Shown here: positions 11,719 through 57,321 of the stretch, in pieces
Numbering within the stretch: the first letter of the stretch is position 1
Layout: the number at the start of each line of letters is the position of its first letter
DNA from: Luteimonas padinae
GTDB lineage: Bacteria; Pseudomonadota; Gammaproteobacteria; Xanthomonadales; Xanthomonadaceae
Assembly: GCF_014652935.1 (NCBI RefSeq)
Contig: NZ_BMZT01000003.1
Location: forward strand, 1 to 64,000
Reading direction: 5' to 3'
Length of the DNA stretch: 64,000 bases
Translations under genes and position numbers: made by a program
The notes under the pieces: generated by a model
Seen by the model: the letters and a program-made list of their open reading frames with translations, nothing else
Database searches by the model: none
What the model was told of the DNA's origin: nothing

Positions 11719-13185
11719 GTGGGGGCGCGCACGGGGATGGCGGGGCAGGGCGGGGAGGCGCTGGAGCTGGCGCTGGGCCTGCTGCGCGCGCCCGCCCTGC
11801 GCACGTCCCTGCGCACGCGGGCCCTGCCCGAGGGCATCGGCGAAGTGCTGGCGATCGCGTCGGGGTCTTCCGCTGCGGCGCGTGAGGCATCCGCCCGCAC
11901 CGGCCACCCCGAAGCCGAACTGGTGGAAGCCTCGCGCTTCTACATCCAGCAGGTGCTGCTGGCCGAAGGCGCCGACGCCTACCGCAACCTCGGCGCCGCA
12001 CCGGACGCCACGCACGCCGTGCTGCGCGAGCACCACCACCTGCTGATGCGCTGGCTGCACCCCGACCGCAGCGAAGGCGCCCAGTGGGACTCCGCGCTGT
12101 CGACGCGCGTCAACCAGGCCTGGAACCACCTCCGCACCCCCCACGCCCGCGCCACCTACGACGCCACCCCCCACACCCCGCCCGCCCCCCCAGCTCCCCC
12201 TGTAGGAGCAGCTAAAGCTGCGACCCTCCCCCCCATCCCCTACACCCACCTCCCACCCCCCACCCCCATCCCCACCGGCCCCATCGCCGTCGCCTTCCTC
12301 ACCATCGCCTGTCTCGCCCTGGCGTGGCTGGCCCTGACCCGCGAAGACCGCCTGGACGCCCTGCGCGATGTGGCCCACGTCCCCGCGCAGGACATCGACG
12401 TGAGCGCACGCATGGCCGCACCGCTGCCGCGCGTGCTGGCGGACGTGGACGCGCCCGCGCCCGCGCCGGCGGAGATGCCGGCGGCCGAGGTGATGGCGGC
12501 AGCAGCGTTGGCGGCGGACGTGGCCGCACAGACAGCGGCGGCGGAGGCACAGTCGCTGGTGCAACCGCCCGAAGCCGCCGACTGGCCCACCCCGGCCACG
12601 ACCCCGACCCCGGCCCCGTCCCCGACCCCGACCCCGACCCCGACCCCCCTCCCTGTAGGAGCAGCTACAGCTGCGACCCACCCCACGACCACCACCCCGG
12701 TGGACGATGAGGGCGTCGGGGAAGAGGTCGCAGCTATAGCTGCTCCTACAGGAGCGGGCGTCGGCGGGGCGGGCGTCGGCGGGGCGGGCGACAGCGGGGC
12801 GGGCGTCGGCGGGGTGGGCGACGGCGGGGCGGCTACGGAGGACCCGGTGCGCCTCTTCCGCGACGCCGAGGCCGCCCTCGACAGCGTCACCGCCTGGTTC
12901 GCCTCCGAACGCGGCGGCGAGCCCTTCTGGCTCGACCTCCCCGTCAGCCTCGAGGCCGCCGCAATCCGCCATGACCTCCACGCCCGCCACGCGCCTGCCG
13001 CGCGCAGCCGCATGGCCATCGTCCAGCCCAACTGGACCCTCGGCAGCGGCACCGCCTCGGTGTCCGGCGCCTACCGCCTCCACGGCCGCCGCGGCACCGT
13101 CGAGACCGGCATGCTCAGCGTCCAGCTGGCCCGCCGCGGCGAACACTGGCGCATCGCCCGCCTGCACCTGGAGCCCGCGCGATGA
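11719..13185 (+). CDS. Membrane-anchored J-domain-like protein with REP-encoded linker peptides
   Basis: A 488-residue protein read from a GTG 8 bases after the kinase stop. Residues about 80-145 form a J-domain-like helical region with the HPD motif (WLHPDRS, His114). A Pro-rich stretch follows, then one membrane helix (about 186-206), then a Pro/Thr, Ala and Gly-rich linker to about 375. A compact folded C-terminal domain follows (about 380-488, WLDLPVSLEAAAI...). Three REP palindromes are translated in frame: PVGAAKAAT at 161-169, PVGAATAAT at 312-320 and VAAIAAPTG at 337-345. The HPD suggests it recruits Hsp70, and the context suggests assembly or control of the export complex. The TPR gene overlaps its stop by 4 bases. 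An exact function is not known. Confidence 0.75.
   Translation: MGARTGMAGQGGEALELALGLLRAPALRTSLRTRALPEGIGEVLAIASGSSAAAREASARTGHPEAELVEASRFYIQQVLLAEGADAYRNLGAAPDATHAVLREHHHLLMRWLHPDRSEGAQWDSALSTRVNQAWNHLRTPHARATYDATPHTPPAPPAPPVGAAKAATLPPIPYTHLPPPTPIPTGPIAVAFLTIACLALAWLALTREDRLDALRDVAHVPAQDIDVSARMAAPLPRVLADVDAPAPAPAEMPAAEVMAAAALAADVAAQTAAAEAQSLVQPPEAADWPTPATTPTPAPSPTPTPTPTPLPVGAATAATHPTTTTPVDDEGVGEEVAAIAAPTGAGVGGAGVGGAGDSGAGVGGVGDGGAATEDPVRLFRDAEAALDSVTAWFASERGGEPFWLDLPVSLEAAAIRHDLHARHAPAARSRMAIVQPNWTLGSGTASVSGAYRLHGRRGTVETGMLSVQLARRGEHWRIARLHLEPAR
12201..12225 (+). repeat. REP-like palindrome inside the J-domain gene (single copy)
   Basis: TGTAGGAGCAGCTAAAGCTGC followed by GACC, in forward orientation, with an imperfect centre (TAAA). 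It is read in the one frame that avoids the internal TAG and encodes PVGAAKAAT. Confidence 0.75.
12654..12750. repeat. Inverted REP pair (REPIN-like) inside the J-domain gene
   Basis: The forward copy 12654-12678 (GGAGCAGCTACAGCTGCGACC core) and the reverse copy 12726-12750 (GGTCGCAGCTATAGCTGCTCC core) are separated by 47 bases. The two can fold into a long hairpin. Both copies lie in frame and encode PVGAATAAT and VAAIAAPT. Confidence 0.8.
12754..12830 (+). repeat. Short tandem repeat encoding a Gly/Val linker
   Basis: Near-identical 15-base units of the form GGCGTCGGCGGGGCG are repeated about five times, encoding GVGGA-type units. The repeat begins directly beyond the reverse REP copy. Upstream at about 12600-12650 there is a second simple repeat of CCCCGA units encoding Pro-Thr. 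Confidence 0.75.
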
Positions 13186-55719: not shown

Positions 55720-57321
55720 ATGCCTGCAATCGATCCAGCACACATGCTTGCCAGCGCGGGCCCCGCCCCGCGCCGATGGCGTGCCCATGCCTTCGCGCTC
55801 GCCGCAACCCTTCCTGTGGGAGCGGCTATGGCCGCAAACGCTGTCATGTCCACCGACGGAGCGGCGGTCGCAGCGATAGCCGCTCCTGCAACAGCAGCGA
55901 CAACACCCGCCAGCAGCGATGACATCGGCGCACGTCTCGCCGCTCCGCCCGCCATCATCGACCTCGTCGACGCCGGCGACTTCAAGGGCGCCGAAGCGGC
56001 CATCGCCCGCGCGCTCGAAGACGCGTCGCTCGGCGTAGACCAGCGCACCGCGCTCGAGTTCCAGCGCGAGCGCATGCGCCGCATCCTGATGGACTTCCGC
56101 CTGGACGAAGCCGGCGCGAAGGCGCGCCTGCGTCGCGACATCCCCGACCTCACCGACGCCGAGTTCGCGCGCTGGGACGCCGCGGGCCTGATCGAGGCGC
56201 GGGTGATCGACGGCCAGCGCCGCTGGTTCAGCCGCGGCCCCTCCAATCTGTTCCGCCTGAGCGAGGAGGCGCGCAAGCGCCGCGCGACGCCGCTGGTGGT
56301 CTACGACAGCCCGCTAAAAGCGCCGCATCCGCAGCACGCCCGCGTGCGCGAGGCCGCCCTGGCCAGCGGCGAGCGCGCGGTCGCGCCGCAGCGCGTGCGC
56401 GTGACACAGTCGCTGACGGTCAAGCCCGACGCGGTGCCCCCCGGCGAGACCGTGCGCGCCTGGCTGCCGTTCCCGCGCGCCATCGCCGGGCAGCAGGAGC
56501 ACATCGCGCTGCAGTCGACGGTGCCGGCCGATCACCAGCTCGCGCCCGAGTCCGCGCTGCAGCGCACCGTGTACATGGAGGCGCCGGCGGTTGCCGGCGA
56601 GCCGACCGCGTTCTCGGTGACCTACGAGCTGACCGTCAGCGCGCAGTACAACCGGATCGATCCCGAGCGCGTGGTACCGGCAGAGATCACGCCCGAGCTC
56701 GCGCCCTTTGTTGCCGAGCGCGCGCCACACGTGGTGTTCAACGACGCCATGCGCCTGGAGTCCGCGCGCATCGTCGGCGACGAGACCAACCCCTACCGCA
56801 TCGCGCAGAAGCTCTTCGCCGCCGTCGACCGGATCCCCTGGGCCGGCGCCCGCGAGTATTCCACCATCACCAACATCGGCCAGCACGCACTGGAGCAGGG
56901 CCACGCGGACTGCGGCCAGCAGACCCTGTTGCTGATCACCCTGCTGCGCATGAACGGCATCCCCGCGCGCTGGCAGTCGGGCTGGATCTTCTCCGACGGC
57001 GAATACAACGACATGCACGACTGGGGCTGGATGTACCTGGCCCCCTACGGCTGGGTGCCGATGGACGTGACCTTCGGCCGCCTGCCCGGCGCCGCGCCCG
57101 AGCTGCAGGACTTCTACCTGGGCGGACTCGACGCCTGGCGCATCGCATTCAACGACGACTGGTCGCGCGAGTTCGTGCCGGCCAAGCACCACCCGCGTTC
57201 CGAAACCGTCGACCTGCAGCGTGGCGAAGCCGAGTGGGACGGCGGCAACCTGTACTTCGACCAGTGGACCTACGACTTCGAGTGGCAGCTGCTGCCACCG
57301 GTCATGGACGACGGCACCTGA
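55720..57321 (+). CDS. Secreted transglutaminase-like protein with REP-encoded signal peptide
   Basis: A 533-residue precursor of the transglutaminase/protease superfamily. The catalytic triad is Cys398 (HADCGQQTLLL), His433 (MHDWGWMYL) and Asp449 (VPMDVTFG). N-terminal helical and beta regions (about 70-350) precede it. The signal peptide is unusual. The core HAFALAATL continues into PVGAAMAAN (residues 32-40), which is encoded by a REP palindrome and supplies an A-M-A cleavage site. A reverse copy encodes VAAIAAPA (50-57) just after it. Such proteins often act on murein peptides or proteins. The neighbours suggest peptide processing. Confidence 0.85.
   Translation: MPAIDPAHMLASAGPAPRRWRAHAFALAATLPVGAAMAANAVMSTDGAAVAAIAAPATAATTPASSDDIGARLAAPPAIIDLVDAGDFKGAEAAIARALEDASLGVDQRTALEFQRERMRRILMDFRLDEAGAKARLRRDIPDLTDAEFARWDAAGLIEARVIDGQRRWFSRGPSNLFRLSEEARKRRATPLVVYDSPLKAPHPQHARVREAALASGERAVAPQRVRVTQSLTVKPDAVPPGETVRAWLPFPRAIAGQQEHIALQSTVPADHQLAPESALQRTVYMEAPAVAGEPTAFSVTYELTVSAQYNRIDPERVVPAEITPELAPFVAERAPHVVFNDAMRLESARIVGDETNPYRIAQKLFAAVDRIPWAGAREYSTITNIGQHALEQGHADCGQQTLLLITLLRMNGIPARWQSGWIFSDGEYNDMHDWGWMYLAPYGWVPMDVTFGRLPGAAPELQDFYLGGLDAWRIAFNDDWSREFVPAKHHPRSETVDLQRGEAEWDGGNLYFDQWTYDFEWQLLPPVMDDGT
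55815..55890. repeat. Inverted REP pair (REPIN-like) inside the transglutaminase-like gene
   Basis: The forward copy 55815-55839 (GGAGCGGCTATGGCCGC core) and the reverse copy 55866-55890 (GCAGCGATAGCCGCTCC core) are separated by 26 bases. Both lie in frame without stops, in the region encoding the signal peptide and early mature part. Confidence 0.8.

What the first reader, a model, noticed from the sequence alone, without database searches (positions are those of the whole stretch)
12199..12753. REP palindromes translated in frame three times inside a membrane J-domain protein
Three copies of a dispersed palindrome occur in one gene, each in an open frame: PVGAAKAAT, PVGAATAAT and, from the reverse copy, VAAIAAPTG. 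The forward copies both use the frame that avoids the repeat's own TAG, and two copies form an inverted REPIN-type pair. All lie in disordered Pro/Gly-rich linkers, where insertion should be tolerated. This resembles the protein-coding palindromic elements known from Rickettsia. I know of no description of such protein-coding copies for this xanthomonad repeat, though I cannot search.
Basis: partly seen in the sequence, partly recalled or inferred. Interest (0 to 1): 0.82.

Follow-up and report, generated by a model that had tools for sequence, protein, structure and literature searches.

The report
DNA palindromes translated inside protein linkers
In a Luteimonas bacterium, three copies of a short repeated DNA palindrome lie in frame inside one gene and are predicted to be translated as small alanine-rich pieces in floppy parts of the protein; the same repeat lies in frame in other core genes of the genus, likely as tolerated landings of a mobile repeat, a phenomenon already reported for related repeats.

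Summary
Confirmed. Three near-identical 24-bp GTAG-type REP palindromes (12201-12224 +, 12654-12677 +, 12727-12750 -) lie in frame in a J-domain membrane protein of a Luteimonas species; the last two form a REPIN pair. The genome has 312 copies and a RAYT transposase gene flanked by REPINs. The copies fall in low-confidence linkers of the predicted fold. L. colneyensis has all three in the same frames; G072 has two at the same sites with a different, still paired, stem; 10 other Luteimonas J-gene loci lack them (two truncated). Of 265 copies examined, 28 lie inside 13 called genes (LexA, DnaE2, YheS, IcmF, MurF, BioH and others), 23 of 28 in the alanine frame; G072 gave 13 of 14. DnaE2 is the main exception: its forward copies use the other open frame in six species. 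LexA and YheS have REP-free alleles in L. colneyensis, and the same YheS loop holds unrelated inverted repeats in other Luteimonas. New here are the genes, presence/absence alleles, frame bias and the multi-family YheS loop. Likely passengers of a mobile repeat; no peptide function is shown.

The parts
11719..13185 (+). J-domain membrane protein gene (GTG start 11719, ATG start 11737); J domain, predicted membrane helix, low-confidence stretch, C-terminal beta domain
12201..12224 (+). REP copy 1, encodes VGAAKAAT between J domain and membrane helix
   Evidence: at the same site in L. colneyensis and, with a G-C stem, in G072
12654..12677 (+). REP copy 2, encodes VGAATAAT; left arm of REPIN
   Evidence: present in L. 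colneyensis, not found in G072
12727..12750 (-). REP copy 3, reverse orientation, encodes VAAIAAPT; right arm of REPIN
   Evidence: at the same site in L. colneyensis and, with a G-C stem, in G072
12654..12750 (.). inverted REP pair (REPIN-like), 49 bp between the arms
   Evidence: RNA fold z -10.1

Best explanation
These are three copies of the genome's GTAG-type REP repeat lying in frame in a J-domain membrane protein gene, likely placed there by the genome's REP-associated transposase (RAYT) before this species split from L. colneyensis, and predicted to be translated as alanine-rich linker peptides. Shown: the copies, their frames, the RAYT gene between two REPINs, copies at the same sites in sister species, and orthologues without them. 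Inferred: that RAYT moved them, that the protein is made, and that survivors are insertions whose phase kept the gene open and whose place was an unstructured linker. The alanine frame is favoured outside DnaE2 probably because it gives a bland peptide (V-G-A-A-x-A-A-T) while the other open frame gives Cys and charged residues. The peptides themselves most likely have no function; the proteins tolerate them.
For: 312 copies in the genome, reversed control 0. RAYT: NF047646 123.1 bits against a cut-off of 80, with a REPIN on each side. Same three sites and frames in L. colneyensis; sites 1 and 3 in G072. 13 of 52 genomes have a strong J-gene match: REPs in 3 of the 13 loci, none in 10, of which G006 and G014 are cut by contig ends and G034 has one weak 3-mismatch match. 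Linkers mostly at pLDDT below 50. Genome-wide 28 of 265 copies inside called genes, 23 of 28 in the alanine frame, binomial p 0.0009; by gene 11 of 13, p 0.022. G072: 13 of 14 inside copies in the alanine frame, the other ending its gene. G018: 6 of 6 in the part examined. At YheS, MurF, BioH and IcmF the copies lie in length insertions against solved homologues.
Against: No expression or peptide evidence. Frame counts are not independent: copies share genes and sister species share sites. In DnaE2 4 of the 6 copies of G000 use the other open frame, and all 16 forward copies seen in six species do; the DnaE2 copies of G018 and G072 lie outside the sets counted and would lower those counts. Among 16 copies of G000 with clearly coding sequence on both sides only 12 are in the alanine frame. 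The linkers around the copies are of low complexity, so exact insertion points and target duplications cannot be read. No transposition by this RAYT is shown.
Confidence: 0.82

Rival explanations
1. The palindromes are kept in the genes because they act as DNA or RNA elements (RAYT or gyrase site, mRNA hairpin slowing translation between domains), and the amino acids are a by-product.
For: The REPIN folds very stably as RNA (z -10.1). Stem pair 10-19 is complementary in 27 of 28 inside copies and 232 of 237 outside copies, at positions left free in the search pattern. Sites 1 and 3 of the J gene have an A-T pair in G000 and G018 and a G-C pair in G072; in DnaE2 the same difference goes with two residues, CRSSYSCD versus CRSGYSRD.
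Against: Recent insertion of an already palindromic copy gives the same pairing without any function. LexA and YheS copies are absent from L. colneyensis, so they are not needed there. The stem conservation between G000 and G018 was measured on copies chosen for matching the repeat and is biased.
Confidence: 0.25
2. Insertion is non-random: these genes carry a preferred target that attracts several palindromic elements, so the same loop is hit again and again.
For: The same YheS loop holds GTAG REPs in 4 of 30 loci and other inserts in 15 more, 10 of these with an exact inverted repeat of 10 bp or more. DnaE2 linkers hold REPs in 7 of 14 loci examined. Di Nocera 2013 report different REPs at about the same site in recB of two Xanthomonas species.
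Against: The inserts differ in sequence, so one shared target is unlikely; tolerance of the loop explains it as well. Further copies of the linker's own insert were seen in 100-kb samples for two of four genomes tested (G004, G009), not for G034 and G035.
Confidence: 0.25
3. The segments are ordinary Ala/Pro-rich low-complexity sequence that only resembles the repeat.
For: Linkers are Ala/Pro-rich in the orthologues seen.
Against: Exact 24-mers matching a 312-copy repeat, reversed control 0; orthologues have such linkers without the palindrome.
Confidence: 0.01

Closest known systems
Intragenic GTAG REPs (Di Nocera, De Gregorio and Rocco 2013, PMC3733652; sections 5, 15 and part 1 of 17 read)
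   Same: GTAG tag, two bases before the stem and a short tail after it, as they describe for GTAG-1 and GTAG-2; wholly inside ORFs, singly or as dimers; DnaE2 among the targets; TAG supplying stop codons; linkers or loops proposed as tolerant sites.
   Different: Here with alleles with and without the copy in sister species, a frame count, one protein with three copies, and one loop (YheS) holding unrelated inserts in one genus. In the sections read they list genes but give no frame-preference test; their supplementary tables were not available to me.
Rickettsia palindromic elements (RPE)
   Same: Palindromes in frame within unrelated proteins.
   Different: Tag GTAG instead of CGTC; 24-bp units here; a RAYT is present. 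RPE facts are from PMC3733652 and passages of PMC10969869; the original RPE papers were not read.
REPINs and RAYTs
   Same: Inverted pairs; RAYT gene flanked by REPINs.
   Different: REPs are described as almost exclusively intergenic (passage of PMC3686654); here 28 of 265 (G000), 6 of 132 (G018) and 14 of 208 (G072) copies examined lie inside a called gene.
Enterobacterial RU elements found intragenically (Delihas 2007, PMC2759123, abstract and outline seen)
   Same: Small mobile sequence read in frame within genes.
   Different: Longer (103-168 bp) and of another sequence family.

Membership tests
GTAG-type REP | unpaired GT(A/G)G tag followed by a short palindrome | tested here: met
   TGTAG-GA-GCAGCT-AY-AGCTGC-GAC; definition from PMC3686654 and PMC2817692 passages
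GTAG-type REP | high copy number, mostly intergenic | tested here: met
   312 copies; 215 of 265 examined intergenic
GTAG-type REP | cognate RAYT gene flanked by REPs | tested here: met
   G000:C14, NF047646 123.1 bits, a REPIN on both sides
REPIN | two REPs in inverted orientation at short distance | tested here: met
   12654-12677 (+) and 12727-12750 (-), 49 bp apart
REPIN | mobilised as one unit | not testable with these tools
   no transposition assay; in G072 copy 3 is present and no copy 2 was found
Intragenic (protein-coding) REP | whole REP inside an open frame of a real protein | tested here: met
   DnaJ domain, 43 homologous proteins, conserved sequence on both sides
Intragenic (protein-coding) REP | protein with the segment is made | not testable with these tools
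   no proteomics
Rickettsia palindromic element | CGTC tag (as PMC3733652 states for R. conorii RPEs) | tested here: not met
   tag is GTAG

The most novel reading that the evidence does not exclude
In Luteimonas, interdomain linkers of core proteins (YheS, DnaE2, LexA, a J-domain protein) are standing landing strips on which unrelated palindromic elements settle in frame again and again, so that mobile-repeat turnover is a continuing source of new linker peptide; and because the palindrome is kept paired at the DNA level, a switch of REP subfamily drives coupled amino-acid changes (Ser+Cys to Gly+Arg in DnaE2) while being silent in the alanine frame.
Probability: 0.35. Interest if true: 0.75.

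Novelty: new member of a known kind. Interest (0 to 1): 0.52.

Why it matters
It gives a clean, free-living test case for how non-coding mobile repeats become protein sequence: one genus, many species, alleles with and without the insert in the same genes, and two open reading frames whose use can be counted. SOS mutagenesis genes (imuA, dnaE2, lexA) are among the carriers in this genome, which fits the remark of Di Nocera et al. 2013 that repair genes are frequent REP targets and makes it testable.

Tried and rejected
Low-complexity coincidence: rejected by the exact match to a 312-copy repeat with reversed control 0. A first gene caller trained on the longest ORFs called antisense ORFs and was discarded; the caller used was seeded on three stretches of window genes. 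Stem conservation between G000 and G018 (53 of 1512 positions changed in 63 shared copies outside genes, flanks 644 of 4400; 181 of 265 copies had no spanning alignment) is biased, because copies were chosen for matching the repeat in both genomes; not used as evidence. For the J gene alone the stems are unchanged, but with about 11% fourfold-site change (30 of 269) three copies are too few to show constraint; that script stopped with an error before its TPR-gene comparison. Subfamily matching to the host majority holds for G000 (198 of 265 A-T), G018 (118 of 132 A-T) and G072 (88 of the 100 listed G-C, my count) but not clearly for G015, so homogenisation is only proposed. Literature: seven full-text searches; no Luteimonas intragenic REP paper in the listings; of PMC3733652 I read sections 5, 15 and part 1 of 17, of PMC2817692, PMC3686654 and PMC10969869 passages, of PMC8266576 and PMC2759123 abstract and outline; the Rickettsia originals were not read.

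Not done: genus-wide alleles of IcmF, E2, BioH, MurF and the NUDIX-thiamine protein. The G018 census covers 132 copies near places listed, which shows 100 of 156; its DnaE2 copies, found later, lie outside it, as do those of G072. 47 of the 312 copies in G000 were not fetched. DnaE2 was inspected in 14 of the 30 loci fetched.

Full report
What is there. The window belongs to a Luteimonas genome (G000, 3.12 Mb, 35 contigs). Its genus is read from the same-genus genome G018, whose contig C9 has the length (228,739) and J gene of the L. colneyensis Sa2BVA3 contig NZ_JACSQJ010000005.1. The repeat TGTAGGAGC-A-GCTAxAGC-T-GCGAC lies at 12201-12224 (+), 12654-12677 (+) and 12727-12750 (-). All three are inside the ORF 11719/11737-13185, which has a DnaJ domain (PF00226, E 9.5e-7) and lies between a Wzz/GNVR/AAA-type gene and a gene with weak TPR matches. 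The genome holds 312 copies at up to 2 mismatches (160 forward, 152 reverse), with none for the reversed control pattern.

Frames. Read forward, the unit has one closed frame (TAG), one alanine frame (VGAAxAAT) and one Cys/Arg/Ser frame (CRSSYSCD). Read in reverse it likewise has one closed frame, VAAxAAPT, and RSCSCSY. All three copies use the alanine frame. That the TAG frame is avoided only says the gene is intact.

Genome-wide count. With the window and search loci I held 542,992 bases around listed matches, containing 265 of the 312 copies, and called genes with a codon model (529 genes, 89% of the sequence). 215 copies are intergenic, 22 hold the 3' end of a gene, and 28 lie inside 13 called genes. 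From the sequences these are: the ImuA end (2), DnaE2 (6), the LexA hinge (1), the J-domain protein (3), a transglutaminase-like N-terminus (1, possibly a wrong start), an E2 acyltransferase (2, between the E3-binding and catalytic domains), an MMPL-type exporter end (1), a lytic transglycosylase end (4), BioH (1), MurF (2), a NUDIX-thiamine phosphate synthase linker (1), the ABC-F protein YheS (2) and the fused mutase IcmF (2). Family or structure matches back LexA, YheS, E2, NUDIX-TMP synthase, MurF, BioH and IcmF. For DnaE2 Pfam shows only DNA polymerase III alpha domains; the names DnaE2, ImuA, MMPL, transglutaminase and lytic transglycosylase are recalled. 23 of 28 copies use the alanine frame (p 0.0009 against 1:1); by gene it is 11 of 13 (p 0.022). 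Four of the five exceptions are in DnaE2, one in the NUDIX fusion. Of the 16 copies with strongly coding sequence on both sides, 12 use the alanine frame. A second genome, G072, gave 208 copies: 176 intergenic, 18 overlapping gene ends, 14 inside, of which 13 are in the alanine frame and one ends its gene. G018 gave 132 copies, 6 inside, all in the alanine frame. Both sets miss the DnaE2 copies of these genomes, which include other-frame copies: the one forward copy of G072 and, of six in G018, all three forward and one reverse.

They are insertions. Against solved homologues the copies lie in length insertions: YheS residues 324-372 against 2 residues in chain 9vvi_W, MurF 423-478 against 4 (the second piece of that match is weak, E 2.4), BioH 113-145 against 6, IcmF 431-470 against 9. 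In sister species LexA has REPs in 2 of 30 loci (one copy in G000, two in G072) and none in L. colneyensis at 91% identity. YheS has REPs in its loop in 4 of 30 loci (G000, G072, G015, G006) and none in L. colneyensis, whose two pieces match at 98% and 93% on either side of the missing stretch.

The J-domain gene in relatives. L. colneyensis has all three copies in the same frames; two of them differ from the window's in the loop base and the third is identical. Of 52 genomes of the genus, 13 have a strong match to the gene: G000 and G018 (three copies each) and G072 (two, at sites 1 and 3) have REPs, ten do not. Of these ten, G006 and G014 are cut by contig ends and G034 has one weak 3-mismatch match. 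At site 1 the 19 residues to the TGP before the membrane helix are gap-free in G000, G018 and G072, so descent from one insertion is the simplest reading, with the stem pair A-T in two species and G-C in the third; this change is silent in the alanine frame. Among 43 protein homologues, motif search gives clear REP-type peptides in at least eight besides a fragment of the window's own protein, up to six in one (P0013, Luteimonas sp. MJ246), and no Cys-frame peptide in any; the DNA of those outside the held genomes was not seen. AlphaFold2 on 32 sequences puts copy 1 partly and copies 2 and 3 wholly in stretches of pLDDT below 50, between the J domain and the membrane helix and before a confident C-terminal beta domain (mean pLDDT 74.3, pTM 0.40).

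Hot loops. In YheS the stretch from before the CGY motif to the next strand is 24-29 residues in ten of the 30 loci and 42 in L. colneyensis. Four loci hold GTAG REPs there; fifteen hold other long inserts, of which ten have an exact inverted repeat of 10 bp or more (in L307 the longest one lies in the native flank) and five have none of 9 bp or more. In 100-kb samples further copies of the linker's own insert were found for G004 (2 places) and G009 (1 place), none for G034 or G035; pattern counts were 4 and 6 for the matching patterns against reversed controls of 0. DnaE2 has three linkers that carry REPs: of 14 loci examined 7 have one to eight copies and 7 have none. All 16 forward copies there are in the Cys frame; the A-T to G-C stem difference appears as CRSSYSCD against CRSGYSRD or CGSGYSRD. 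Pair 10-19, left free in the search, is complementary in 27 of 28 inside copies and 232 of 237 outside copies of G000.

Mover. The genome has one Y1-type transposase hit, a RAYT (NF047646, 123.1 bits against a cut-off of 80), with a REPIN on each side. That an E. coli RAYT (TnpAREP) processes single-stranded REPs in vitro is from the abstract of PMC8266576; that this RAYT moved these copies is inference.

What is known. Di Nocera et al. 2013 describe GTAG and CGTC REPs inside ORFs in several species, including DnaE2 and, in X. campestris and X. oryzae, different REPs at about the same site of recB; they suggest that insertions in linkers or loops may be neutral, and cite the in-frame Rickettsia elements. 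So the kind is known. What I did not find in the sections and listings read is a frame count, alleles with and without the copy at named sites in sister species of one genus, or one loop entered by several unrelated elements.

Verdict. A real, in-frame set of REP insertions shared with a sister species, a new member of a known kind; most likely neutral passengers in tolerant linkers. Translation is predicted, not shown.

Noticed in passing
G000:C1:30981-36835 and C1:248131-248823 (L001-L010, L265, L396): SOS mutagenesis genes imuA, dnaE2 and lexA (first two names recalled) carry REPs in this genome; dnaE2 has six copies, all six also in L. colneyensis (L397).
   Followed up: partly
L295-L324 (yheS loci of 30 Luteimonas genomes): One loop of YheS holds GTAG REPs in 4 of 30 loci and other long inserts in 15, ten of these with exact inverted repeats of 10 bp or more.
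   Followed up: partly
L188:8742-9221: RAYT gene with a REPIN on each side.
   Followed up: partly
window 55846-57321, REP at 55867: A transglutaminase-like gene (name recalled) has a degenerate REP at its predicted N-terminus in both G000 and G018; possibly a wrong start codon.
   Followed up: no
G000:C8:190398-192584; G018:C6:512783-514327; G072:C1:250167-251741: A lytic transglycosylase-like gene (name recalled) has REP-encoded C-terminal tails with different copy numbers in three species.
   Followed up: no
265 REPs of G000: In 22 copies the TAG of the repeat coincides with the called 3' end of a gene.
   Followed up: no
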